Below the pieces are notes generated by a model that worked only from the letters and a program-made list of their open reading frames with translations, ran no database searches and was not told the DNA's origin. Below, in pieces: positions 46,492-61,915 of a stretch of DNA of 64,000 nt (the first letter of the stretch is position 1; the number at the start of each line of letters is the position of its first letter). Position numbers and translations under genes: made by a program. Source of the DNA: an uncultured Bellilinea sp. (GTDB taxonomy: Bacteria; Chloroflexota; Anaerolineae; Anaerolineales; Anaerolineaceae); the NCBI GenBank assembly GCA_938040735.1, contig CALHYE010000009.1:58299-122298 (forward strand). The letters are read 5' to 3'.

Positions 46492-48063
46492 TTATATTCT
46501 ATTAATATAACCGCGAAACGCCTTTTCAAGTCTTATCATTGCATCCACCATCTTTTCTTGTAATTCATTCCACCGATCTTCATCTTTCAATCCATAATCC
46601 GAAATTACAAACCGAATTCGGCTTGCGCGTTTATCGGGAAGCAATTGCCAATCAAGGGATCCACCGAAAATCTGCTCTATCTCGGTTTTGTGTTGAAAGA
46701 AGTAGTTGTAAACATTTTTATTCCATGCAGCTTCACGATTATCAATATATAATTCTACTTGAGCATCTTCTATACGGACCACATAACTATAAAATAGACC
46801 CGCTTTACCAGCACCAGCATTGATCCAATTTTCTTTGCTAGGTTTCACTTTTGCGTAAAGATTCGTCCTCATCTTCGCTTTCTCCAACAATTGTTGCCAG
46901 AAGTTCAATCGCAACATATGTCGTTTTGCTAAATCATTATCCCTTATTCCCATTCTATTTTGGACATCAGTCTTCTTACCCTTTTGTTGCTTAACATAGG
47001 AAAACAATTTGTAAATAGAGAAAAACGAGTCGATTTGCTCGTTAGAAATCACTTGATCTATATCTTGCCAGTAGAGCGGCTCTATCATTTCCCCCTCTTC
47101 ATAATTCAGAACTCTCAATTCAATACCATTGGTAATTATCCCCCATTTCACCTGATAATACTTCGCTGCCAGAAAACAATAGGATTCCCATGGCAACTCG
47201 GGAACTATCTCTGCAAAATTTTCTCCAGGGTTCACGACAACCAATACCGCTTCGGGCGTGTGATTGGACCCCATGACATCCAGCGTGTACAAGCGTGGGT
47301 TGACCTCTTCCATGGTAAAACCAAGAACCTGGAAAAATTCCTTGATGTACTCCTTCCAGGTCGTTGAACTTGGGCTCTGGTAGTCCCGGTATTGTTTGAT
47401 GGTTTGCAGGGTATTGGTGATTTCTTCCAGTGATTCGGTTGGGAGGAAGTTCTGGAAGGAAACCCGGCGTCGCGTAGGGATGGGTGTTCTCGTCACAGGA
47501 ATTGCTGAGGCGTCATACTCTCGCAGCGCCCACACACCCTTGCCTACTCTCGTGAATAAATCTTTTCCTCCTCGATACAGAATTGAATCGGAAGAATGTT
47601 CTCCCATCACATGAATCACAATTCCAGTCCAACTTTTTGGAAAAGGTCCATCCTTGATCCGCCTTACCTCTTCACATATTTGTGCATTAGTGGCTTGCCC
47701 GCCAAGATTTTTCAAGGCTTGCACGATAGCCTCAACCCAAGTTGTCATTTGATCATCCTCCCTCTCACTAAAAGGAATGGTTGTTTGGGTGCTTTTCGCA
47801 ACCGAAAGACCAGGCTGGTAGGGGCTTCCCTCCAACTCACGCAACGCCCATACCCCTTTGGCAACCTTTCGGAACAAGTCCTTCCCTTTGAAGTTTGCCG
47901 AATCTGATGAATGGGCTTCAATTCTCTCGCGGATACTGGCTTGATAGTTGGCAGGCAAAGGTTCTGTTCGGATCCTTTTCACTTCGTCATAAATCTGGTT
48001 GAGGGTTGCCTGCCCGCCTAGGTTCTTCAACGCCTGAACAATGTCTTCGACCCAGGTCGCCAT
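46492..48063 (-). CDS. BREX-associated protein: two tandem HARE-HTH-like domains, HsdR_N-like middle region, DUF4268-like C-terminus
   Basis: Duplicated MATWVEDIVQALKNLGGQATLNQIYDEVKRI / MTTWVEAIVQALKNLGGQATNAQICEEVRRI; C-terminal LNFWQQLLEKAKMRTNLYAKVKPSKENWINAGAGKAGLFYSYVV...VELYIDNREAAWNKNVYNYFFQHKTEIEQIFGGSLDWQLL. Confidence 0.75.
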   Translation of the reverse strand: MATWVEDIVQALKNLGGQATLNQIYDEVKRIRTEPLPANYQASIRERIEAHSSDSANFKGKDLFRKVAKGVWALRELEGSPYQPGLSVAKSTQTTIPFSEREDDQMTTWVEAIVQALKNLGGQATNAQICEEVRRIKDGPFPKSWTGIVIHVMGEHSSDSILYRGGKDLFTRVGKGVWALREYDASAIPVTRTPIPTRRRVSFQNFLPTESLEEITNTLQTIKQYRDYQSPSSTTWKEYIKEFFQVLGFTMEEVNPRLYTLDVMGSNHTPEAVLVVVNPGENFAEIVPELPWESYCFLAAKYYQVKWGIITNGIELRVLNYEEGEMIEPLYWQDIDQVISNEQIDSFFSIYKLFSYVKQQKGKKTDVQNRMGIRDNDLAKRHMLRLNFWQQLLEKAKMRTNLYAKVKPSKENWINAGAGKAGLFYSYVVRIEDAQVELYIDNREAAWNKNVYNYFFQHKTEIEQIFGGSLDWQLLPDKRASRIRFVISDYGLKDEDRWNELQEKMVDAMIRLEKAFRGYINRI

Positions 48064-48065
48064 CT

Positions 48066-50138
48066 TTATCCCTCATCTCGCTGGAACACAATATCCGTTT
48101 CCCGGCATTTTCGCTTGGTTTGGTCAATTTCGCTCAATTCGTACTTTGATTCGGGCTTTTGGAAAATATCCAAGCCGCGCCCGGGATAGATACACCAGCC
48201 GTTATCTGCCCATATCTTCCGGTCGTGGATGACAGGGTCAAATTCAAAAGCAAAGTGTATGCCATGCAGGGTCAGGCTGGCTTTGATCTCTGCGAACTTT
48301 TGTTCCTGAACCTTTTCTTGATAGGCATCCTCGGATGAAGTGATCAGTCTCAGTTCTATTTGTCCGGCTGAGGTTTCTAAAATCCCCGCAAAAGCGACGA
48401 AGTTCCGAATCTGGTATTCCAATCGAACGTAAGGATCAACCACCACGATCTTTTTCGCGCCCTTGAGATAGGGTCCAAAGAGATTCTGGTAGCTGTATCC
48501 GGTTTCTCCCTCGCGGATGTGGACCGTCTTCGCCGTCAACGTCGTGGGTTGATCAGCGTTCGTTAACGGCTTTCCCACCTCTTCGCCTAAGAACTGGAAT
48601 ACTTTGGCTTCTTCCTCATCGGTTGGAACGACAGGCTCCGCGGAAACTGGGGGCGTTGCTTCTGCCAGGACGCTTTCTTCAATATAAAACACCAAACGGT
48701 GACAGCGTTGAAATTCATCGGGGATCTTGGACTTGAAGGTGGTGGGAATATACTCGCGGTCGAGTTTGCACAGCTCATCGCGCACACGCTGACGCAGCTC
48801 CAGTGCCGGGTTCACGCAGAGGGCGTAAAACTCGTCTTCCGCGGGGTCTTTATCAGGGAAGATAATTTTTAACAGACCCGTGGCACCCGCCTCGATGGCT
48901 TTGTTGTCGCGCATATCGTCGCAATTTTCCAGTTCCATCGTAGTTTTGACATAATCGCGGTAGCTGATGTCACTGCGCAGGGAGTGCAGGATTTCGCCAA
49001 AAATATCGCCTTTTAAACCGATTGCCCGCGAAGGGGTTTCTTTGCTGACGCGCGGCAAATCCCACCCGGGCAGCAATCCTGAAAAGCGGTCGATGAAAGC
49101 GGTCTCGCGTAAGAAGTTCGGGAAGACGCGGAACAGCCCGATTTGCTCATTGATCGGGCGTTTGTTCGCATCCAGTTCGATGTTTGCCAGCATGACCAAC
49201 CCTGCTTCGGCGGTGATCGAGCTGGCGCTGCCGCGCCCGAACCGCCCGGCTTCCAGGTAAGACTTCAAGAGAGCGGTCAGCTCGCCCGAGGTGTCGGCTT
49301 TGACTTTTTGGGCTTCGTCAACCACCACGCAATCGTAGCGGGTGATCAGTCCAGGCGTTTTGCGGGAATCGTTGAAGAACAGCACCGCGGGCGTGATCGC
49401 CCCTGAACGGACAGCCACATAGCGGGACATATTTTCAAATACAAAGCTCTTACCTGTGCCTTTCGGCGCCAGTTCGACCAGGTTGTAGCGCGGTTCCACC
49501 ATGGGGATCAGGCGCGAGATGAGCAAGATCTTCTGCCGTTCGGTGTAGAGCCGGTGATTGAACCCCATCGAAGACACCAGGAAATCAATCCATTCCTGGG
49601 TGGTGAAATGCTTGCGGCTCTCGCGGAAATACTCCAGGTCCATGTTCGCCAGTTGAAACGGGCGAAACTCGCGCATCCATACCTGCCCGCGCGGGTTGTC
49701 CTCGCTTTTAGGCACATAATAGAGCGTGCCTACCCCCCACAGCCCGCTACTCAATAGCATCTCATTGTCCTGCACGATTTGAGGTATCACGAATGCTGTG
49801 TCTTCGTCCAGGAATGGGATATGCAAGTAACGATCGCCCATTGCCAGATTGACATAGACAGAATAGTTGTCCAGCAATTGGACTTCCAATTGCTCGTAAA
49901 GCTGATTCTTGATCGTTTCTTTCTGGCTCTTATCCGGCAGGTATTTTTGCACAAAGCGCGCAATCTTTTCCCGGGCAGCATCGGTCAATTCATTGCTGTC
50001 CTCGATGTAATGCGAAATAATCCATTCACGCACATAGGTGGGTATGGCGCGGCTGCCAAAGCCAGCTTGGTGGACAAATGATTTGTTGATCACAATTTCG
50101 CTGAAAACGTCCAGAGCCTTTTGTTCGAAACTTTCCAT
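48066..50138 (-). CDS. brxL: BREX Lon-like ATPase BrxL
   Basis: NLVELAPKGTGKSFVFENMSRYV (Walker A), YDCVVVDEAQKVKADTSGELTALLKSYLEAGRFGRG, LRETAFIDRFSGLLPGWDLPRVSKE. Confidence 0.93.
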   Translation of the reverse strand: MESFEQKALDVFSEIVINKSFVHQAGFGSRAIPTYVREWIISHYIEDSNELTDAAREKIARFVQKYLPDKSQKETIKNQLYEQLEVQLLDNYSVYVNLAMGDRYLHIPFLDEDTAFVIPQIVQDNEMLLSSGLWGVGTLYYVPKSEDNPRGQVWMREFRPFQLANMDLEYFRESRKHFTTQEWIDFLVSSMGFNHRLYTERQKILLISRLIPMVEPRYNLVELAPKGTGKSFVFENMSRYVAVRSGAITPAVLFFNDSRKTPGLITRYDCVVVDEAQKVKADTSGELTALLKSYLEAGRFGRGSASSITAEAGLVMLANIELDANKRPINEQIGLFRVFPNFLRETAFIDRFSGLLPGWDLPRVSKETPSRAIGLKGDIFGEILHSLRSDISYRDYVKTTMELENCDDMRDNKAIEAGATGLLKIIFPDKDPAEDEFYALCVNPALELRQRVRDELCKLDREYIPTTFKSKIPDEFQRCHRLVFYIEESVLAEATPPVSAEPVVPTDEEEAKVFQFLGEEVGKPLTNADQPTTLTAKTVHIREGETGYSYQNLFGPYLKGAKKIVVVDPYVRLEYQIRNFVAFAGILETSAGQIELRLITSSEDAYQEKVQEQKFAEIKASLTLHGIHFAFEFDPVIHDRKIWADNGWCIYPGRGLDIFQKPESKYELSEIDQTKRKCRETDIVFQRDEG

Positions 50139-50166
50139 CGCACACTCCTACGCCAGTATCTTGATA

Positions 50167-52515
50167 TTACACGTCAAAGAGGTCGCTGTTCTTTTCTTCG
50201 ACCATCTTCTTCATGGTGATCTTCGCCTGGAAATCGAAGATGTGCTGCTCGCCGCGGGCTTGAAAACGAACGCGCAGCCGCAGGCTGGTTTGATCTTCCG
50301 GGACTTTGGTCTGCCGGAAGCGAGATTGGATTTGCAGCGAGGTCTTTGTCTTTCCATTCAGCAAAGATACCTTGACGGGTTCGCTTTCCACGTTGCCATT
50401 GAGCACCATCACCGAGATGTTTTCAACCGCCAGGTCGTTGGGATTACCCAGCTCCAGTTCGATGCTTTCCATGCGGTAGCGATACTCGGTTTTGCGCAGC
50501 AATACGGTCAGGTCTTGCAGCGGCACCGCTGCCGGCTCAAACACCAAGTAAGGGACGATCATTTCTTCTGGCAGCAAGCCGCCATGCACATAGAAGTCTT
50601 TCGCCGTGGGAATGAAACGGTTGCCGCGCCGTGCGCAGAGCACGTTTTCAGGATTTAAAAAATCATTGGCGTGCAGGAAAAAACAGTCCAGCCTCAAATT
50701 ATCGGCTAAACCCGCAAATCGCTCCGGGCTGACGGTGATGTAGCGGTGCGAGCGGGTGTCAAAACCCGCGGTTTTGAAAAAGGAGGGATCCAGGTCATTG
50801 GGGATTTCTGCCGGAATGCGCGTGGATCCATGGTCGGAAACCACGTGAATGCGGATGTTTTCCCGCAAGCCGTGCTTCTCGATAAACCGGACGCAGTTCT
50901 CCACCAGACTCTCCAGTAGGTGTTGAATGTGGACGCGGTGCGGCATGCCGATCTCATCGGCGGAGCGGTGCATGGCTTTATCCACTGCCAGGTAGTTGAC
51001 CACATAGGCTGCGGCGTCGACCGTCTGCACGGCAGAAAGCCCGCCGATATCGCTGAGGTAGCGGAAGGCGCGGTCGTTGAAATACGGCACCCAGCCTTTC
51101 TCGATAATCCCCTTGTAAGTCTTGTCATCCATCGCCTGGTAGCCGACCGCGCCGGAGAGCAGGCACTTCTTGGAGATCTCGGTCTCGCTGGGCGCCATGG
51201 CGATGTAGGGCTCGGCGGCAGCCAGGTAGTAGCCGCGCTCCTGGAACAGATCACGCAGCATTTCGGAAAAGGACCAATCCAGGTTGTCGATCACCAAAAC
51301 CAGGTTCACCACTCCAGCGCGTTTTAAATCCAGTGCTTTATTGGGGAGAATGTTGAAGACCATACGTTTCGAATTGGCGTGGAGGTTATCCCAGCTTTTC
51401 ATCAGCCACTCCGAAAAAAGGTCGCCGATTGAATACAGATCAGGGTCAAACTGTTCTTGACGATCACACCAGGATTGGTAGGGTAGGTAGGACTCGGTCG
51501 CCCATACAAGCATGGTATCCACATCCCAGTGAAGATCTGGGGGTTCGGGCTTGGGTGGACGGACAAGATCGCGCAAGGCAGCGATTTTCCGAGCGAGCCG
51601 GCGAGACTGAGCGCTGAACTTTTCCTCAATTTGATCCATCAGCTCCGCTGTGATCCAATCGGGATGGTCTCGCAGGTGCTTTTCGACCGCCTCAAACTCC
51701 ACCGCCAGCAGACCGCTGATGGTTTCGAGCAGCGCCGCCAGTTCGTCTGGGTTATTCGGCTGCTGGCTGTTCATTAAGTAAGTGACCTGGGTCACCGTTT
51801 CAGGGATCTCGTCTTCCTTGACCTCCAGCTCCTCCAGCGGCAGTTTGAGCGCTCGGAACAGGTCGAAAGTTTCGCCCAACAATGCATCCCCCAGGGCGGG
51901 ATAGCCGCGCAAGGCGCGAAACTGCATCAGGCTGCGCTTCAAAGCGGGTGGGTCGGCTGCGAACAGATCCACCAGCCGGCGCTGTTCACCGGAGCGAGCG
52001 TTGCTCTTCCACTCCTCTACGCGGCTGTGCAGGGCGCGCGCCAGCAGCGATATAGACTTCAACTTGCGCCAGCGTTGAGGCTCGACCGCATTGAGCAGGG
52101 CGGCGATCTGGGTGAAAGGAAAGGATTTGGCGTTGAAAATGGGCGCGTAAAAGTGCGCCAGCAGAGTATCCTCAAAAGAAAAGCCCGGCTTCGGCTGCAG
52201 GTCGAGCGCCAGCAGCCCGGCTTGGATGATTTCTTCATTGCTAACGCTGACGGGAATCGCCATCCCCCAGCGCTGAGCCAGGGCGGCGCGGGCGTCGAGC
52301 GTCTCAAAGACGAACGCCCCTTGCGGGTAGCGGGCGGACATATTCTTGAACCATTGTATAACCACCGGCTGCGTTATGACCAGGGCATACTCTTGATGAT
52401 TTCCGTAGGCGTGTTGGATATCTTTCACCCGTTGGGGATATTCCCCAATGGAGACCATTCGTTCTGCTGGAATGCCAAACCCCAAATTATTCGGATCTGC
52501 AATAATCTTAATCAT
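50167..52515 (-). CDS. pglZ: PglZ-domain (alkaline-phosphatase superfamily) BREX protein
   Basis: VVNLVLVIDNLDWSFSEMLRDLFQ...YIAMAPSETEISKKCLLSG...IHVVSDHGSTRIPAEIP. Confidence 0.92.
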   Translation of the reverse strand: MIKIIADPNNLGFGIPAERMVSIGEYPQRVKDIQHAYGNHQEYALVITQPVVIQWFKNMSARYPQGAFVFETLDARAALAQRWGMAIPVSVSNEEIIQAGLLALDLQPKPGFSFEDTLLAHFYAPIFNAKSFPFTQIAALLNAVEPQRWRKLKSISLLARALHSRVEEWKSNARSGEQRRLVDLFAADPPALKRSLMQFRALRGYPALGDALLGETFDLFRALKLPLEELEVKEDEIPETVTQVTYLMNSQQPNNPDELAALLETISGLLAVEFEAVEKHLRDHPDWITAELMDQIEEKFSAQSRRLARKIAALRDLVRPPKPEPPDLHWDVDTMLVWATESYLPYQSWCDRQEQFDPDLYSIGDLFSEWLMKSWDNLHANSKRMVFNILPNKALDLKRAGVVNLVLVIDNLDWSFSEMLRDLFQERGYYLAAAEPYIAMAPSETEISKKCLLSGAVGYQAMDDKTYKGIIEKGWVPYFNDRAFRYLSDIGGLSAVQTVDAAAYVVNYLAVDKAMHRSADEIGMPHRVHIQHLLESLVENCVRFIEKHGLRENIRIHVVSDHGSTRIPAEIPNDLDPSFFKTAGFDTRSHRYITVSPERFAGLADNLRLDCFFLHANDFLNPENVLCARRGNRFIPTAKDFYVHGGLLPEEMIVPYLVFEPAAVPLQDLTVLLRKTEYRYRMESIELELGNPNDLAVENISVMVLNGNVESEPVKVSLLNGKTKTSLQIQSRFRQTKVPEDQTSLRLRVRFQARGEQHIFDFQAKITMKKMVEEKNSDLFDV

Positions 52516-53176
52516 GATTCCTTTGCCCTGGATTCGGCTGTGGGAGCTGCCGGGTATCCACATGAACTTGCATACAGGCTCTAACAGTTTCAACAAATTC
52601 TTCCCTGGTTCGCTGTGAGGCGAGATTATATAGTTGCCTTCCTGTGCTATCCCACTGACTGTGGTGCGCCTTTTGATGCTGGTATGTAGTAAAACGCTTG
52701 TAGATAAAATCCAGGATTTCATCCCATATCAGCTGCACCGCAGCGGGAAGAATTGCGTCATTTTTTCTCTCGCCCAGAGCGAATAATCTCACCCGATAGG
52801 CATCATCCTGGAAAAAGCCCTGGTGATAGAGCGCCTGGGCGACCTCAACGACCCGTTGCGAATCAAACGCGCCAACGGCATACAAGACGCGCTGCATGTT
52901 TTCATCCAATGGATTGGTCCAGGGTCCGTTCAGGCGGCATAAACCGTGCTTGACTTCCGCAAAAATAATATCAATTCTGCCGTCGGAATTGAAAACGGGA
53001 TGGTCTGGCATTGGTTCGCCGGAGGTCAACAATTCCGCGCGGTGCGGGAACCTTACTGCCAGCACATCCACATCTGTGCGCTGCGAACCGCGCCGGTCGG
53101 GGTGTACCACAAAGTTCGTGATGGTAGCGCACCCGTTCAGGCGAAAGAACCAGTAGGCAATCCTCTCAGGATTCAT
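52508..53176 (-). CDS. BREX-embedded protein with candidate PD-(D/E)XK nuclease motif
   Basis: MNPERIAYWFFRLNGCATITNFVVHPDRRGSQRTDVDVLAVRFPHRAEL...GRIDIIFAEVKHGLCRLNG: D...(E)xK pattern; overlaps the pglZ start and abuts the pglX end. Confidence 0.6.
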   Translation of the reverse strand: MNPERIAYWFFRLNGCATITNFVVHPDRRGSQRTDVDVLAVRFPHRAELLTSGEPMPDHPVFNSDGRIDIIFAEVKHGLCRLNGPWTNPLDENMQRVLYAVGAFDSQRVVEVAQALYHQGFFQDDAYRVRLFALGERKNDAILPAAVQLIWDEILDFIYKRFTTYQHQKAHHSQWDSTGRQLYNLASQRTREEFVETVRACMQVHVDTRQLPQPNPGQRNHD

Positions 53177-53177
53177 T

Positions 53178-56100
53178 TCATACCTCCTTCTCCTCATCGG
53201 CGCGCCAGACCAGGTCATATTCTTTCAGGAAGCGGTTCTGCTCTTCAGTAAGACCGTAGATCGGGGCAATGAAATCATCCATGCGGTTGATGATATGCCG
53301 GCTTTTGCGCGGGTAAAACTCTTGATAATAGGCGGTCGAACCGCCCAAGGCAGTACTTTTGATAATTGAATTCTTCTGATAGTCGTCCATTAACTCTTTG
53401 ACCAACAAAGCCACTTTTTCCTGATTTTGACGGAAGGTTTCATAGCCGTGAATACCGAACTCGCCAATCTCGGAGATCAAGACATGAAATTCGTCACTTT
53501 GTGTAATCCACCAATAATAAAAAGGGAGGAGTTGACAAGTAAGACGAATAAATCTCTATCGAATGTATTGTTAAAATGAAATTCTCTCAATCCTGTAGAT
53601 ATTGATGGGATTGCATCCTTTCCCCGCTTAAAATACGGAACAAAGTCGTAGGCTTTGATCCAGTAGCGGGCAATATTATGAATATAGCAGGAATTATTGC
53701 TATCTGTATCGGTGGAAATTAAACTGCCTATTCTCAGAGGTGCGTTTTTGATCTTCCGATAGATTTCTGCACCTGTTTCAGAACCCACTTTTGGAATCAC
53801 GCTCTGATCTATACAATCCACATAAGCGAGTCCGGGTTCACGAACAACCTGCTCTTGATCTTCTTTTCGCCAGCGCCACAATTTTGAAGAATACAATTGA
53901 CACGCCGAAGTAAATCCTTTCGTATGGGCAACAAATATGGTGATTCGTTGTGAAACACCCTCAAACAAAGTATTTGGCCTTATAGAATAGTGGCTTGCAT
54001 ATAGTCGGTGGTAATTATGGTAAACCCCTTGGCGAACGTTTTCATAACTGGAACCGCAGGCAAACGATAACGGCACGATAAACCCAATCGATCCTCGAGG
54101 CTGATTCAAGTCGACTGCCCGGGTGATAAAGTGACCAAACAGGTTTCCACATCCGGCAGCGGGTTCTTTCTTGAAATAGCCGTTTTCCTTGAAGGTGTCA
54201 TAGGGCGGGTTGCAGGTGATGCAGGTGAAGCCGCGGCGCGATAAACAAACATCCGGGAACTCCAATTCCCAATGAAAGTGTTTTTGGAGCGCTAATGACC
54301 CGGCGAGGGGGAAGTCTTTGCTTTGAACCAGGGCAGCGTACTGCATTTCTTCCACTTGATTGCCAAAATACAGGCTGGTGTGCAGGTCGCAAATCGCCTT
54401 GTAGCCCTCCAAAATGCGCTCCATTTCCTCTAACCAGGCTTTCTTGGCGCGCACATCCTCCAGGCTGGCGGTGGCTTTGGCGGCGATCAGGCGGCTCTTG
54501 GCGATCACCTCTTCCACCGCTGCCTTGAAATCCGGGTCGCGTTCGAAGAGATTGAGCTGGCGCGGCTCCTTTTTGGTGGTGGAGAAGGGATAATTGCCGA
54601 TCTCATCCAGGCGCGCCCCCACCAGGCTGTTGCCACATTTGAGATGGTGATTTAAGAAAGAGAGTGGTTGGTTTTTCGCCATGGAGAGGATCCACAGCGA
54701 GAGCTTTGCCAGTTCCACCGCCAGCGGGTTGAGGTCCACGCCGTAGATACAGTTCTCCACCACCCAGCGCCGCCAGTAACCTGTGCCGCTTTCCAGGCTG
54801 GTCTCGATGCCGGTTTCGTTCAAAATTTCCGTGATAAAGTTAGCAATTAAATTGGCGGCATTGACCAGAAAATGCCCGCTGCCCATGGCGGGGTCTAGCA
54901 CTGAAAGTTCCAGCACCTTTTCGCGTACAAATGCCAGCGCATTTTCTTCCAAAAGCGCACCCAGCGCAGCACGCTCGTCGGCGTCAATCGCTCGCTGATA
55001 GGCTTCCAGGGTGGGTCGCTGTTCTGCCATAAAAGCGTCTTTGAGTTCCTTCAGCTTCTCGCCCACCGTGTTGCGCACAATGTAATCCACGATGTACTCC
55101 GGGGTGTAATACGAGCCGGTGGATTTGCGCTCGCTGGGATCACCAGCAAAATAGACCTCACCGGCTTTGATAAAATGTCCCTTCACCAGCCTGCCGCCCT
55201 GCGAAGCGGGGATGAACTGGATCTTCCCTTTGGCAACCTTGACTTCAGTATTCTCCTGGGCAATATACAGCTTGTGCTCCAGCAACCCTTCGTAGAGCGT
55301 GCCCAGGTGGCGCACACTCATGTCGCGGTAGCTGATCGGTTTCTCTTCACCGTTCTTCTCACGGTAACTGGTCAGGTTGAAAACGACATTTGCCAGATAG
55401 GAGTCGCTGATGCGGGTGTCGGACAGAAAACGGGTGAACTCGCTCTCCTGCGGGCTGAACAGACCGCCGTTGTAAGTTTGATCAATATCCACGAAGATCG
55501 TTTCCAGGTCTTCCCACAACCCGGCAGCGCCCGGGGAGCCGCCCCCTGCCTCCCTGAGGCGCTGGCTGGTCTCGATCACCTTCTTCAGCAGGGCGTGGTT
55601 CTCGTCGCTGAGCAAAAGGCGGGCGTCGGCGTACAAGAGGAACAGCAGACGGAACATGTATAGCATGGCGGAGTGGTAGATTTTGCGGCGCTGGGCTTCG
55701 TCATCCAAGCCCTCACCCCCAACCCCTCTCCCACCTGCAGGAGAGGGGAGAACAGATGAGGTTCGTAAAGACTCCACATACCCCATGCACAGGTCCGAAA
55801 GCACGCCCTTGCCGCCCTCTTCGCGCTGCTTGAGGGCGTTCGCCAGCTCTTTTTCGATGTAGTCAATCTTCTGCAGCGATTCCTGCTTGAAGCGGTCAAA
55901 CTGGCATTTGCCGTCTGCGCCGATGACGAAATTTTCCGCCTTCAGGAATTTGTGGAAGATCTGGTATGCATCCCTGGCTTTCGCCTTCAAAATAGCTTCG
56001 AGGTCAATCTCCAGATAGGTCTCATAAGGCGTGGGTTCATCCAGATGATAAATGCGCCAAAGATTGCCGTTGGTCAGCAGTCCCCATTGTAATTGGCGCT

Positions 56101-56455
56101 CGCGCACGGCGCGGATGGACTTTTCCGCCCAATTACGCCCCATGCGGGTGCTGTCCAAATCTTCCTCAGGCAGCAAGATAAAACAGACCGAAAGCGGCGC
56201 CTCATTGCCAGCGCTGCCCATGGGGAACAGGGATGTCAACGACTCGGAAAAGGGTTTGGCGAAAAACCCCAGCGCCGAGAGCACCTCGTGGACGTAGCTA
56301 TCTTTCCACGCCTGCAGGCTGCGTGTATCGGCGTACTCGCGGTATTCCGCCAGCACATTGAGCGAAGCCCACACTTCGGCGTTTTCCACCTGGCGGGTGA
56401 TTTCCTCCAGGTAAATCTCAGAAAAGAGCATTTCATTTCGGTAATAGATCGTCAT
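53178..56455 (-). CDS. pglX: PglX-like adenine-specific DNA methyltransferase, split by a 1-nt frameshift (ORFs 53477..56455 and 53178..53480)
   Basis: LDPAMGSGHFLVNAANL (motif I), ITCNPPYDTF (motif IV); frame 1 ends LVNSSLFIIGGLHKVTNFMS*, adjacent frame continues LVNSSLF-YYWWITQSDEFHVLISEIGEFGIHGYETFRQNQEK. Confidence 0.88.
55711..55750. repeat. Palindromic repeat-like insertion inside pglX
   Basis: CCCCTCTCC-cacctgca-GGAGAGGGG, 9-bp perfect inverted repeat preceded by CCTCACCCCCAA; read in frame as SVLPSPAGGRGVGGEG. Confidence 0.6.
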
Positions 56456-56500
56456 GGTGTCACGTTCTCGGAACTGTCTCTATCCAGCGCATGGAACCTG

Positions 56501-59500
56501 TTACTTGAGGTTATCCAAAGCCCGGCGGACTTCATTTTCCAATTCGTTTACCTTAAATAGATCCGCTTTGGATAGCTCATTGAGCAAGGAGCGCAAGGTG
56601 ATGCGGGCGGCGTCTTTGCTGGGGGGGAATACAAAGGTGACCGTCTCCTCGAAGGCGCTTTGTGCCGGGCGAACGATCTTGTATTTTTCAAGCTCGTCAA
56701 TCGCCTCGATGGTCTTGACCGCGCTGTAGTTGCCCTTTTCATCCGCCACCACCAGCTTGACTTTACGGTTGCCCTGGATGGTCAGCGTATCGCCGGGCGA
56801 TAGTTTACCCCGCTGCTGGCTGGAGGAAGGATCTGAGCCATCCACGGTGTAGTAGATGACCCCCTGACCATCTTCAGTATTCGCATGCAGAATCAACTCG
56901 CCTTGGTAGGTGACCTGGTTCCCATGTTGGGAAAGATCATTTTCGAATTCCAACTCGAGCTGGCTGATCTGCGGCGCGTTGTTCTCGATGTGCGCCTTCC
57001 CGTTGAGGATTCTCCCCACGTACATATCCACGTAATTGCTCATCCAGGTATCCACGCTGCCCAACCTATAGGCTTCCGGCAGGGTCTTGAAGAGCAGCTC
57101 GCGAATATTGACATACGAGGTGAACTTGACCAACGGTTTGCTGTCATTGTTATGATAGGACACCGTGAGGTCTTTTTGGATGCTACTCAGCCCGTTGTAC
57201 CAGTTCCTGAACGCCTCCTGGATGTCCAGGTCCAGATGAGAAGGGCTTCCGAACACTTCGGCTATCTTCTTCAGGATTTGCTCTTCAACGTTGGCTTGAA
57301 TCGCCTCCGCTGCAGCTTTGAAGGATTTCAAATGGACTTCGATATGGAGAAGTTTAGCGGGGGTCAGCGCCTCTCCCGGCACCTGACCGAGTAACTCCAA
57401 CAAGTCGTGCTTGATGAAGCGGAAGGGATCTTTTGTCTTCGCCTGACTTAAGGCTTCTGCCAGCGGCTTTTCTGCCTCCAAGTAGAAGTCCAGCGAACGG
57501 GCGATGATCGGCAGGTTATCCCACCAGGCAGTCACCGCCTGATACGCCTCGCTGATAGTGTATGTTTTGCCCGCCGGGGCCGGTAGGTTGGTGAAAATTT
57601 GCGTGACTTTGGCAAAGTACGCCTGGTCCTCGGCGCTGACCGGCTCAAACAGGATCACGGCGGAGGGATATTGCCCTTGAACCAGGGCAAGCATGTCCTC
57701 TGTACTGGCGAACTGGACATCGGTCAGATTGTTAGGCTCGCGCTTGAAGCGCAACCCATCGCCGTAGAAGCGCCTTGCCAGCAGCAGCATTAGCGTGACC
57801 GCGATTTCTCCCTGACCAAATTCCTCGAAGTACGGCTTAATGAACTTGAGCAGATTCACCTGCCCCATACCCTCCAACGAAGCCAGGCTTTCGAGCAGAT
57901 GGGCGTAAGCCGGCAGAGCAGCGCGGAATTTTTGGATATCCTTTTCAGTTTCCAGGTAACGGACATCGCCTTCCACACTTAAGATGCGCAAAGCCTGGTG
58001 ATCCACAAAACATTTGCGCAGGTACTTGGTTCCGCCGCGGTTATCGGGCCAGGACCAGTTGACACGAATCGGCTGCGAGAGGTCGCAGAGAATATCGCCG
58101 GCTTCTTTGAAAATGGCCCGCACCTGACCGGTCAAATTAATGTGGCACTTGTTGAATTCATTGTGCCCGAAGGTGTTGCGCCGCGCTCCGTAGAACGCCT
58201 GGACCATCCGGTTGGCAACGTCATGGCGTTTGTTCTCCTGAACAGGGACTTCCGCGCCGCCTTGGGCAAACCAGTACACTTTTGAGTTGGTAAAGTACGC
58301 AGTTTTCGCCTCCGCCAGGACTCTGAGCGCCTCATCGCGGATTTTCTTCTCTTCAGATTTTTCGTATGGGCTGAAGTTCTGTGATTGCTTCCTAAACCAG
58401 TCGCTGTCGAGGGATTTTAGGGTAAAGATCGCGTCATAGACCGCGATCGGGCTGCGAGGAATGGCGACCATGACCCGCGGCTGGTCGTTGTGAGCAACAG
58501 CTTTTTTAGCTGTGTCAATGTCCTGGTCGCTCTCGCAAAAGACATACACCACCGTGCCCTCGTAAGCGCCGGAGCGGCTGGCAACCGACTGCCTTTCCTG
58601 CTCTTGCGCGGCGAAGAATGACAGCGAAACGCCGTCGACCAGTTGCTTTTGGGTTAACTGGGCTGGAGTGGCAAAGACGACTTTGAGACGCTTGTCTTCA
58701 CTATACGCGGCGTTGTAATCTTTCGCTTCCAGGTATATTTCATCCCCTTTCAGTGGATTAAACTCCAGGAATGATCCCAGCAAGTTGGTTGGGCGGTTTG
58801 CCGGGTTGGCTTTATATTGCTCGACCAGACGCTGCACGTCTTTACGGTCCCCGCGCACGAGTTCATAAATGCCATGGTTATTAAAGAGCACGCCAGCATC
58901 GCAAAGCAGTTTGAGACGGGCTTCGATTTGGGTTTTTTCCTCGTTTGAGACGTAATCCAACGCAAACTCGATATTTTGGCCTGTGTTCGCAATGGTCACA
59001 TCTGGCGTGCTGGCAATCTCGTTCACCAGCATGACTTTGATGATCCGCAACATGAGGTCATCAGCCGTGTCGAACAATTGCTGCTGACTTTGTCGCGCTA
59101 CATATGCATTCAATTCGCGAAGCGTGGCTTCGTAGTTGATCACCGCGTTTTTCACGCGGTCCACCAGCCGGCTGTTGGTTGCTTTAAGACTATCTTTGAA
59201 ATAGTCCACCAGAAGGTCAGCCGTGTAGAGCGCCAGCTTTCCTTGTTCAACAACCTCATGATTCTCTATGAACCATGGGTAAGAATACGGTTGAACGTTT
59301 ACCCACCCATCTTCGCCGGTTTCAAACTCCGGGGCGAAGAACTTAAACACCGAGCGGTTATCCGAGCCAGCTTCCCCGGCTAACCGCAGCAACGCAAAGG
59401 TCGCAAGTGGGTGCATCGGATATATGTTTTGGATAACGTTGTTCTTGATTTTTGGGGCGGGGAGCCAGTTGAAGAGTCGCAAGCGGTTGCATTCTCCAGA

Positions 59501-60607
59501 GAACCAGGTGAACTTACCTGACTGCGACTGAACGGATTGCCATGCCAGCGAGTCTTTCTTGGGTTGGACAATGGCGGCAATGATGTCTTCCATCCCCTGG
59601 GTCTGGAGGCCGATTTCAGTGACACGCGCTTCCAGGGTTTCGGCGTTTAGGTCGCCAATTTGCCCGTGATTGCGAAAAGCTTTGTGCCCGGTTCCAATGA
59701 AGACAACCGTGCCGCCCTTTTCTAAAGTGGAATTAGCGCAGTATTGAGCAAAATCTAGCAAAGTTGTGTAATTCACCAAGTTTGCATCAATGGCTGCCCC
59801 AAATTCGTCATACAGAAATACAATCCCCTTGTATCGCTCCTTAAACTGGGGGGTTTGGAGGAGATCGGAGATGATATCGCGCAGGTTGTCTTTCTCATAG
59901 GCGAATTCGGTATCTGTCACTTGCTTGAAACAACTCTTGAAGGCGCTCAATGCCTGGTCGTCAAATTTCTCCAATCCGTCTATCAGATCGTTAATCGTCC
60001 AATCGGGATATAACCTACCGATGGCGGCTTCCAGGTCTGAATAAAACCGGCTTTCGATTCTGCGGGCTTCCCAATTCTTGATCCGGCGCAACGCTTCACG
60101 ATAATGACTATCCACCAGGATATTCGCTTCATCGCCTTTGAGAGCATCCTGCAACGCTCTTAGCAGCGCTCCTTCAAAGTCCAGGTTTAAACTGTACCGG
60201 CATAAAGCCACAAGATAGCGGCCCGATTTCCTGGCATCCTTAAGCGAAGCAGATTTTCGTTCTCTGAGCGTTTCACCCGGTTTAAGTAGCACCTCACCCT
60301 GCGCGGTTTCGTAATTCTTGAAGAACGTCTCAATTTCAGGCACATCACTGGGGTTAGCAAAGTAATTCGCCAGCATTAATAAAAGATGGGACTTACCCGT
60401 GCCATAACTCCCGGATAGAAAGTAAAAGCGGCGATCCTTTGGATTGAGCGCGTTTGCGATTTTCTCAAAAGCCTGACGATGGGCGGCGATGGGCTTGTAG
60501 CGTTCCATTCGCCCGCGGTTTTTCACAATGTCGTAGTATTCTTCGTACAGGTCAACATAACTGGTATAACCGCTATTGATCTGTATGATGTCGCGAATTT
60601 TTATCAT
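56501..60607 (-). CDS. brxC: BrxC/PglY-family BREX ATPase
   Basis: 1368 aa; IIQINSGYTSYVDLYEEYYDIVKNRGRMERYKPIAAHRQAFEKIANALNPKDRRFYFLSGSYGTGKSHLLLMLANYF; KGIVFLYDEFGAAID. Confidence 0.93.
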   Translation of the reverse strand: MIKIRDIIQINSGYTSYVDLYEEYYDIVKNRGRMERYKPIAAHRQAFEKIANALNPKDRRFYFLSGSYGTGKSHLLLMLANYFANPSDVPEIETFFKNYETAQGEVLLKPGETLRERKSASLKDARKSGRYLVALCRYSLNLDFEGALLRALQDALKGDEANILVDSHYREALRRIKNWEARRIESRFYSDLEAAIGRLYPDWTINDLIDGLEKFDDQALSAFKSCFKQVTDTEFAYEKDNLRDIISDLLQTPQFKERYKGIVFLYDEFGAAIDANLVNYTTLLDFAQYCANSTLEKGGTVVFIGTGHKAFRNHGQIGDLNAETLEARVTEIGLQTQGMEDIIAAIVQPKKDSLAWQSVQSQSGKFTWFSGECNRLRLFNWLPAPKIKNNVIQNIYPMHPLATFALLRLAGEAGSDNRSVFKFFAPEFETGEDGWVNVQPYSYPWFIENHEVVEQGKLALYTADLLVDYFKDSLKATNSRLVDRVKNAVINYEATLRELNAYVARQSQQQLFDTADDLMLRIIKVMLVNEIASTPDVTIANTGQNIEFALDYVSNEEKTQIEARLKLLCDAGVLFNNHGIYELVRGDRKDVQRLVEQYKANPANRPTNLLGSFLEFNPLKGDEIYLEAKDYNAAYSEDKRLKVVFATPAQLTQKQLVDGVSLSFFAAQEQERQSVASRSGAYEGTVVYVFCESDQDIDTAKKAVAHNDQPRVMVAIPRSPIAVYDAIFTLKSLDSDWFRKQSQNFSPYEKSEEKKIRDEALRVLAEAKTAYFTNSKVYWFAQGGAEVPVQENKRHDVANRMVQAFYGARRNTFGHNEFNKCHINLTGQVRAIFKEAGDILCDLSQPIRVNWSWPDNRGGTKYLRKCFVDHQALRILSVEGDVRYLETEKDIQKFRAALPAYAHLLESLASLEGMGQVNLLKFIKPYFEEFGQGEIAVTLMLLLARRFYGDGLRFKREPNNLTDVQFASTEDMLALVQGQYPSAVILFEPVSAEDQAYFAKVTQIFTNLPAPAGKTYTISEAYQAVTAWWDNLPIIARSLDFYLEAEKPLAEALSQAKTKDPFRFIKHDLLELLGQVPGEALTPAKLLHIEVHLKSFKAAAEAIQANVEEQILKKIAEVFGSPSHLDLDIQEAFRNWYNGLSSIQKDLTVSYHNNDSKPLVKFTSYVNIRELLFKTLPEAYRLGSVDTWMSNYVDMYVGRILNGKAHIENNAPQISQLELEFENDLSQHGNQVTYQGELILHANTEDGQGVIYYTVDGSDPSSSQQRGKLSPGDTLTIQGNRKVKLVVADEKGNYSAVKTIEAIDELEKYKIVRPAQSAFEETVTFVFPPSKDAARITLRSLLNELSKADLFKVNELENEVRRALDNLK

Positions 60608-60621
60608 GACTGTAAACTCCC

Positions 60622-61101
60622 CTAGGTGATGTCGTTAAAGTCGGTCAGATTCAGGATTCTACTTTTGCCTTGAGAATCATAAATTCTCAGGGCTTCAATT
60701 TCATGCGAAGTCTGCAGGCAAAGGATCAGTTTGGCTTTCATACCCTCTCTGTAGCCATCCCATTGGTTGTTCACCAGCCGATAGAAACCCTGTCGCTCTG
60801 ATCTTCTCCACGTGTCGATCAGGAAATCCACTCGATCAACGATCATTAAAGACTGAGATTGACTTTGTTGAATCAATAAGTTTCTGAATTTTTCAGGGTC
60901 GAAACAGTCAATATTTTCGCTCAGCTCCGGGAATTGAATGAATAAATCTAGTAGATCCAGATATTTTCCACCCAGATGGTTACAGATTTTTTGGCTGAAA
61001 GTGGTTAGGGCTGGAGCCATCATTGGAGCAGTATGAATAATAATGGCGCGATAGCGTTCTTGCTCCAACCCTCTTAAGTAATCAAAAACATCAATGGGCA
61101 T
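60622..61101 (-). CDS. Small BREX-operon protein, NTPase-like fold with no Walker A (BrxF- or BrxB-position protein)
   Basis: YRAIIIHTAPMMAPALTTFSQKI where a P-loop would lie; SLMIVDRVDFLIDTW Walker B-like; directly upstream of brxC. Confidence 0.5.
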   Translation of the reverse strand: MPIDVFDYLRGLEQERYRAIIIHTAPMMAPALTTFSQKICNHLGGKYLDLLDLFIQFPELSENIDCFDPEKFRNLLIQQSQSQSLMIVDRVDFLIDTWRRSERQGFYRLVNNQWDGYREGMKAKLILCLQTSHEIEALRIYDSQGKSRILNLTDFNDIT

Positions 61102-61102
61102 C

Positions 61103-61915
61103 CTATCCCTCGTAGATTTTATGAAGAACAAATTCTGGCGTCAGGTCATCGGTGAACCGTACCTGGTCCAAGTTGGCTAATTGCTCCAAACGCACCAGGC
61201 CGGCATTATGTAAACCCCCTAATTGCGATCTGACCTGGTATTCGGATAGAAGCAACACCCTCCCTGGGCTATTTTCAGCATGGCAAACCTCCTCAATACT
61301 CAGCGCTGAAGAGCCAGGAAAATGTTGTTCTCTGAAATGCGCCAGGCAAAACAAAAAAGCCAGAGCAGGAACGTCCACCGGTTTGGATTTAATAAAATTA
61401 CCTGTTCCTTTTGCAGCAAAGATCTCTAAATGAGACAGCTCGCTGCGTGTGTAAGCAGCAAAAACCGCTCCGACCTCTTTGGGTAATTTTTCGGAAATCG
61501 TTCTTTCTGAAAAATGGATAGCCAGATCGGGAAAATAGTGATCGGCAACTTGGTTAATTGAAAATTGATCTTGAGAAAATAATACGGTATTGATGATTCG
61601 ATGCCAAACGACATATTCAGGATTACTGGATACCAGATAGTGAATCATCCATAACGTATCAAGCCGATCAAAATAGGGGTCGAATTGGATGACAGCCTTT
61701 CCAAATGGCGTCAGCAGAGTTGCTCGTGGTAACACAAGTCCAAAACCAGTCATCATGCTAGTCAAATTTTCAACCTGTTTATAGGGGATACCCAAGCCAG
61801 CAACAATTTCCTGTCGAGGGATTTTCCTCCGACTTTCTTGGGAATGCAGGAATTGTAAAATCCTTGTTATTTGATCAAAACGTGGGCGATAACCGTTGGT
61901 AAATTGTAGTTTCAT
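61103..61915 (-). CDS. DUF4007-like protein, first gene of the BREX operon
   Basis: LLTPFGKAVIQFDPYFDRLDTLWMIHYLVSSNPEYVVWHRIINTV resembles the DUF4007 core (LTpfG..l...DPYLed..TLWLLHy.L.snpe....w...fN). Confidence 0.6.
   Translation of the reverse strand: MKLQFTNGYRPRFDQITRILQFLHSQESRRKIPRQEIVAGLGIPYKQVENLTSMMTGFGLVLPRATLLTPFGKAVIQFDPYFDRLDTLWMIHYLVSSNPEYVVWHRIINTVLFSQDQFSINQVADHYFPDLAIHFSERTISEKLPKEVGAVFAAYTRSELSHLEIFAAKGTGNFIKSKPVDVPALAFLFCLAHFREQHFPGSSALSIEEVCHAENSPGRVLLLSEYQVRSQLGGLHNAGLVRLEQLANLDQVRFTDDLTPEFVLHKIYEG

What the first reader, a model, noticed from the sequence alone, without database searches (positions are those of the whole stretch)
52508..53176. Candidate PD-(D/E)XK nuclease translationally coupled between pglX and pglZ
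Seen: RTDVDVLAVRF ... GRIDIIFAEVKHG gives a D-(x)n-ExK arrangement, and the gene overlaps the pglZ start codon and abuts the pglX end, so it is an integral operon member. Established: canonical BREX core sets lack a recognised restriction nuclease and the exclusion mechanism is unresolved. Inference: this could be an effector nuclease or a DNA-recognition/regulatory subunit using a nuclease fold.
Basis: partly seen in the sequence, partly recalled or inferred. Interest (0 to 1): 0.75.

Follow-up and report, generated by a model that had tools for sequence, protein, structure and literature searches.

The report
Uncatalogued nuclease paired with defence methyltransferases
A small gene inside a BREX anti-phage operon most likely encodes a working DNA-cutting enzyme from an unnamed family that bacteria have repeatedly placed next to the DNA-methylating gene of several different defence systems, which makes it a good candidate for a helper or back-up effector.

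Summary
Window 52508-53176 is a 222-aa gene on the MINUS strand. It starts 1 nt after the methyltransferase stop codon and overlaps the pglZ start by 8 nt. The PD-(D/E)XK reading is well supported. In 55 homologues D37 is invariant (55/55), and E74 and K76 each occur in 54/55. The AlphaFold2 model (pLDDT 93) has the alpha-beta-beta-beta-alpha core, with D on strand 2 and E-V-K on strand 3. No Pfam, PADLOC or NCBIfam model or PDB sequence covers the family. Foldseek hits are mostly PD-(D/E)XK nucleases but none is individually significant.

The gene is not a BREX core component. It sits here in four Anaerolineae operons but is absent from eight distant loci of the same BREX subtype. Homologues occupy the slot after the methyltransferase in BREX-1-like loci (twice between halves of a split pglX), DISARM and type I RM. 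Many others stand alone.

Best reading: an active auxiliary DNase recruited into MTase-based defence operons, alongside an apparently intact PglZ nuclease. Auxiliary PD-(D/E)XK nucleases in BREX were surveyed in 2026 (PMC12839542). What appears new is this family and its recurrent MTase pairing.

The parts
52508..53176 (-). Candidate PD-(D/E)XK nuclease, 222 aa, of an uncatalogued 'RLNG' family
   Evidence: ORF and translation; 55-member alignment; AF2 model pLDDT 93.4; no Pfam/PADLOC/NCBIfam/PDB sequence match
52949..53068 (-). Active-site codons: D37 (53068-53066), E74 (52957-52955), K76 (52951-52949); the invariant E4 is at 53167-53165
   Evidence: D37 55/55, E74 54/55, K76 54/55, E4 55/55; on strands 2 and 3 of the model
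53182..53189 (-). Shine-Dalgarno AAGGAGGT in front of the nuclease ATG
   Evidence: sequence
53477..56455 (-). Adenine-MTase (PglX/DrmMI/type IIG-like), main ORF with NPPY motif; residues 1-180 form an HsdR/IIG-like nuclease domain without D/ExK
   Evidence: Pfam Eco57I, PADLOC DrmMI/IIG/PglX; NPPY; N-domain model and Foldseek hits HsdR EcoR124I, DrdV, BpuSI
53178..53480 (-). C-terminal piece of the same MTase, separated by a 1-nt frameshift in a T-run near 53520
   Evidence: one frame in L014, L015, L016; tblastn in two frames
50167..52515 (-). PglZ, 782 aa; keeps D410, T445, D561-H562, H644
   Evidence: PADLOC/NCBIfam PglZ and PorX matches; alignments
48066..50138 (-). BrxL with a C-terminal PLD-like (MIT_C) domain
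   Evidence: PADLOC BrxL E=4.6e-137, Pfam MIT_C
46492..48063 (-). DUF4268 protein (PADLOC candidate PDC-S11); middle domain homologous to the MTase N-domain
   Evidence: blastp E=2e-11
56501..60607 (-). BrxC/SspC-like ATPase
   Evidence: PADLOC SspC E=1.2e-15, BrxC E=1.6e-8
60622..61131 (-). Small degenerate P-loop protein (BrxB/BrxF-like iSTAND candidate, inference); distant homologues keep a Walker A
   Evidence: homologues L095 GPPMSGKT, L100 GNPMTGKS; degenerate in the window clade
61103..61915 (-). DUF4007 protein (SspB-like; described as BrxA-like in PMC12839542)
   Evidence: Pfam DUF4007, PADLOC SspB

Best explanation
The gene encodes a catalytically competent, metal-dependent PD-(D/E)XK DNA endonuclease. 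It acts as an auxiliary (back-up or complementary) effector of an MTase-containing BREX operon, beside the core nuclease PglZ. Shown here (by sequence and model): fold, complete active-site residues, overlapping genes that imply translational coupling, and repeated recruitment directly downstream of the methyltransferase in BREX, DISARM and type I RM loci. Inferred: that it cleaves invading DNA, and that it is kept silent on host DNA by an activation step or substrate preference (modified, damaged or branched DNA, or a partner complex stalled on foreign DNA) rather than by the host methylation pattern alone. The last point follows because many intact copies exist as single genes with no methyltransferase nearby.
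For: AF2 model pLDDT 93.4, pTM 0.89, alpha-beta-beta-beta-alpha core with D37 on strand 2 and E74/K76 on strand 3. D37 55/55, E74 54/55, K76 54/55, E4/H25/R42 55/55; D, E and K were not part of the search pattern. Foldseek list rich in PD-(D/E)XK nucleases: R2 endonuclease, MspJI, HamA, NucS, Exo5, Hjc, RecU, PspGI. Same operon place in L014-L016. After the MTase in BREX-1-like L051/L066/L067, DISARM L061, DISARM-like L053 and L043, type I RM L035/L059; ATGA overlaps on both sides in L066 and L035. At least 3 changes of MTase linkage forced by supported branches of the tree. Absent from sister BREX loci. PglZ residues intact.
Against: No Foldseek hit below E=1e-3 and no profile match to a characterised nuclease. 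No biochemical data, so substrate and trigger are unknown. Stand-alone copies show only a loose link to defence genes: 126 PADLOC models hit among 149 near neighbours versus 34 among 149 distant ones, which are counts of models rather than genes.
Confidence: 0.65

Rival explanations
1. It is the dedicated cleavage subunit of the methyltransferase complex: it binds PglX/MTase and replaces in trans the lost nuclease activity of the MTase's own N-terminal IIG/HsdR-like domain, cutting when the complex meets unmethylated sites.
For: Immediately downstream of the MTase, same strand, in several system types; between the two halves of split pglX in L051 and L066; between HsdM and the next gene with ATGA overlaps in L035. 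MTase N-domain predicted to have the HsdR/DrdV/BpuSI fold with no ExK.
Against: Most homologues are single genes without an MTase nearby. Other split-pglX BREX loci and distant same-subtype loci lack it. No interaction data.
Confidence: 0.22
2. It is a free-standing homing or mobile endonuclease that uses defence loci as insertion sites, with no defence role.
For: Patchy distribution, found in 5 of 299 genomes of the class after one spurious hit is set aside. Sits between split gene halves in L051/L066. Many single copies.
Against: The pglX split also exists without the nuclease at the junction (L144-L146, L154), so the insert did not cause it. The halves end without intein extensions. It repeats at MTase 3' ends rather than in conserved housekeeping genes. 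Rough binomial P of about 2e-5 for five independent MTase-adjacent origins among 62 loci if 0.5% of genes were MTases (the 0.5% and the five origins are estimates).
Confidence: 0.06
3. A nuclease fold used as a recognition, scaffold or regulatory subunit without catalysis.
For: Inactive PD-(D/E)XK domains are known in defence proteins (BrxHII, RapA; PMC12839542), and the MTase here appears to carry one.
Against: D/E/K all conserved in 53 of 55 members; only L020 (K to T) and L042 (E to D) deviate.
Confidence: 0.07

Closest known systems
Auxiliary/back-up PD-(D/E)XK nucleases of BREX and BR systems (Rakesh & Krishnan 2026, PMC12839542)
   Same: Stand-alone PD-(D/E)XK gene inside a BREX operon beside an apparently intact PglZ
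   Different: The main text read does not name this family, its MTase-adjacent slot, or its sharing with DISARM and type I RM; their supplementary lists could not be checked
BrxU (GmrSD-family type IV enzyme) in a BREX island (PMC8565348)
   Same: An accessory nuclease carried with BREX; L067 has a GmrSD/HNH gene directly after the nuclease
   Different: BrxU is GmrSD-type (ParB-like plus HNH); the window protein is PD-(D/E)XK with no GmrSD or HNH match
YraN/UPF0102, Hjc and other small PD-(D/E)XK nucleases
   Same: Similar core with an N-terminal helix Glu; one member reaches the YraN model at E=0.0098; Hjc, RecU and NucS are in the Foldseek list
   Different: No significant match; extra C-terminal helical region and invariant RLNG/H25/R42
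BREX type 4 (phosphorothioation), for the operon as a whole
   Same: DUF4007, SspC/BrxC-like ATPase, PglZ, BrxL
   Different: An adenine-MTase and no PAPS reductase in the operon

Membership tests
PD-(D/E)XK nuclease superfamily | alpha-beta-beta-beta-alpha-beta core topology | tested here: met
   AF2 model m9bc923f4ac85: H3-13 E17-24 E34-42 E68-75 H93-101 H106-119 E127-135, pLDDT 93.4
PD-(D/E)XK nuclease superfamily | Asp on strand 2 and (D/E)xK on strand 3, conserved among homologues | tested here: met
   D37 55/55, E74 54/55, K76 54/55
PD-(D/E)XK nuclease superfamily | Significant structural match to a solved member | tested here: inconclusive
   204 hits, none below 1e-3; the list is rich in PD-(D/E)XK enzymes
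PD-(D/E)XK nuclease superfamily | Metal-dependent phosphodiester cleavage | not testable with these tools
   needs purified protein
BREX core component | Present in all or most systems of the subtype | tested here: not met
   present in 4 close operons, absent from 8 distant same-subtype loci, several of them truncated by contig ends
Auxiliary nuclease of BREX | Nuclease gene within or next to BREX core genes, not part of the core | tested here: met
   between MTase and pglZ in four operons, optional elsewhere; nuclease activity itself not tested
BREX (the host operon) | PglZ plus BrxC-type ATPase | tested here: met
   PglZ E=3.9e-7 in PADLOC (Pfam PglZ below its cut-off); BrxC E=1.6e-8, SspC E=1.2e-15; BrxL E=4.6e-137
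BREX type 4 | PAPS reductase in place of a methyltransferase | tested here: not met
   no PAPS reductase match among the operon genes scanned; an adenine-MTase is present
GmrSD/BrxU | ParB-like DUF262 plus HNH | tested here: not met
   no such Pfam match
Homing endonuclease in a split gene | Host gene interrupted only where the endonuclease is present | tested here: not met
   pglX is split without the nuclease at the junction in L144-L146 and L154

The most novel reading that the evidence does not exclude
One unnamed PD-(D/E)XK family serves as a plug-in cleavage subunit for type IIG-derived methyltransferases whose own fused nuclease domain has decayed, and the same plug-in is shared by BREX, DISARM and type I RM. 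If so, these systems would share an interchangeable restriction effector, and MTase-associated cutting would be part of exclusion in some BREX systems.
Probability: 0.2. Interest if true: 0.75.

Novelty: new member of a known kind. Interest (0 to 1): 0.5.

Why it matters
How BREX stops phages is not settled. PglZ is now known to be a nuclease, but mutating it leaves substantial protection (PMC12205998), so other effectors are expected. This family gives a defined, testable candidate with a clear active site. It is absent from the profile libraries used to annotate defence systems, and it recurs in the same slot next to the methyltransferase in several unrelated systems, so one set of mutants would be informative for more than BREX.

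Tried and rejected
Translation of the plus strand at the given coordinates holds stops; the gene is on the minus strand. Single-sequence searches of Pfam, PADLOC, NCBIfam and PDB gave nothing useful, nor did per-member scans of the 55 homologues; a PDB profile search gave only two weak, unrelated-looking matches. Scans of viral contigs and phages found no relative. The G157 hit (E=0.0017) aligns with a membrane-protein-like ORF and was dropped. 'Integral BREX component' was rejected after the sister-locus checks. Intein-type or homing insertion in split pglX was rejected. A defence-island enrichment test for stand-alone copies gave only a coarse result.

Full report
Observation. The finding lies on the minus strand. 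ATG is at 53176 with AAGGAGGT 5 nt upstream, and the stop is at 52508; 222 aa. Its start is 1 nt after the stop of the methyltransferase's C-terminal frame, and its end overlaps the pglZ ATG (52515) by 8 nt. The operon, in order of transcription, is DUF4007 - small degenerate P-loop protein - BrxC/SspC-like ATPase - adenine-MTase - nuclease - PglZ - BrxL - DUF4268 protein. The window's MTase is split by a 1-nt frameshift in a T-run near 53520; three relatives have one continuous frame, so this is either an assembly error or a real lesion.

Fold and active site. A genome scan keyed to the N-terminal [WL][FY][FL]RLNG motif gave 61 homologues. That motif is therefore conserved by selection of the sample, but D37, E74 and K76 were not part of the pattern. 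In an alignment of 55 members D37 is invariant, E74 and K76 each hold in 54, and E4, H25 and R42 are invariant. AlphaFold2 on this alignment gives pLDDT 93.4 and pTM 0.89 with helix - three strands - helix at the core, D37 on strand 2 and E74-V-K76 on strand 3. Foldseek against the PDB has no hit below 1e-3, but PD-(D/E)XK enzymes are frequent in the list: R2 endonuclease, MspJI, HamA, NucS, Exo5, Hjc, RecU, PspGI, MunI, Cas4 (the assignment of these enzymes to PD-(D/E)XK is general knowledge). No Pfam, PADLOC or NCBIfam model and no PDB sequence covers the family. The nearest weak profile match of interest is YraN, itself a PD-(D/E)XK family (general knowledge), for one member at E=0.0098. 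A RefSeq plasmid homologue is annotated 'hypothetical protein'.

Where homologues lie. Three Anaerolineae (L014, L015, L016; 85%, 82% and 78% identity) carry the operon with the nuclease in the same place; the L014 contig begins inside BrxC. In BREX-1-like loci L051, L066 and L067 the nuclease follows pglX. In L051 and L066 pglX is split into an MTase half and a target-recognition half, with the nuclease between them (L051 has a further 288-aa ORF there); in L066 both junctions are ATGA overlaps. In DISARM L061 the order is DrmD - DrmMI - nuclease - DrmA - DrmB; L053 and L043 are DISARM-like with DrmD/DpdE-type helicases, and in L043 one gene lies between MTase and nuclease. In type I RM L035 it sits between HsdM and a 299-aa gene upstream of HsdS and HsdR, with ATGA overlaps on both sides; in L059 it lies about 400 nt downstream of HsdM at a contig end. 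L034 has it after Qat-type genes. On the tree the MTase-linked members need five changes of state, at least three forced by supported branches. Many of the remaining loci are single genes.

Core or auxiliary? Searching the class with the window's PglZ found eight distant loci (26-34% identity) of the same subtype, with MTase, DUF4007, the small P-loop protein, BrxC, PglZ and BrxL where the contig reaches them. None has a nuclease homologue. L101 has OLD/TOPRIM-like genes between MTase and BrxC instead (recognised by eye). Other split-pglX BREX-1 loci (L144-L146) also lack it, and L154 (the L022 genome) has it only beyond the end of the operon on the other strand. The nuclease is therefore a recruited auxiliary gene, and the pglX split is not caused by it.

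Mechanism. The window's PglZ keeps D410, T445 (the presumed nucleophile), D561-H562 and H644. These appear to correspond to the metal-site residues of PorX/PglZ; mutating T538 (alone or with H741) in E. fergusonii PglZ reduced defence by about 3 logs without abolishing it (PMC12205998). So the operon probably encodes at least two active nucleases. The MTase's first 180 residues are predicted to have the HsdR/type IIG nuclease fold (Foldseek list led by HsdR EcoR124I, with DrdV and BpuSI; none below 1e-3), but the strand that should carry ExK reads CFILLPEE and lacks the catalytic residues. This leaves room for the rival that the separate nuclease supplies cutting in trans. I rank it below the auxiliary reading because so many intact copies live without an MTase, which suggests the enzyme is safe on host DNA without one.

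Known or new. Rakesh & Krishnan (PMC12839542) report PD-(D/E)XK enzymes as the commonest auxiliary nucleases in BREX loci, many within the operon. The gene is therefore a new member of a known kind. What I did not find described in the main texts read is this family, its sharing among BREX, DISARM and type I RM in the slot after the MTase, and a DUF4007-containing BREX operon with an adenine-MTase in place of PAPS reductase. Their supplementary tables could not be read here, so absence from the text is not proof of novelty.

Noticed in passing
window 46492-61915: The operon combines type-4 BREX parts (DUF4007, SspC-like ATPase, PglZ, BrxL) with an adenine-MTase and no PAPS reductase. Distant relatives with the same plan occur across the class (L095, L100, L101), so it may be an undescribed BREX subtype.
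   Followed up: partly
window 53178-53545: 1-nt frameshift in a T-run in the MTase gene; three relatives have one open frame. Either a MAG assembly error or a real inactivation or switch.
   Followed up: partly
window 55886-56455 and 46969-47451: The MTase N-terminal domain and the middle of the DUF4268 protein are homologous (E=2e-11) and look like inactive HsdR/IIG-type nuclease domains.
   Followed up: partly
window 60622-61131; L095 7898-8386; L100 14372-14890: The small P-loop protein has lost its Walker A in the window clade but keeps it in distant homologues, suggesting decay to an inactive STAND-like sensor.
   Followed up: no
L154 10301-16598 (L022 genome); L144-L146: BREX-1-like loci with pglX split into MTase and recognition halves; L154 has two tandem recognition halves after one MTase half.
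   Followed up: partly
L148 543-5079: A different gene, Mrr-like by eye (421 aa), sits between fragments of another split pglX; possibly a second nuclease family in the same slot.
   Followed up: no
L014 11623-14516; L034 4951-9673: Qat-type genes (KAP ATPase and partners) lie next to both a BREX operon and a stand-alone copy of the nuclease.
   Followed up: no
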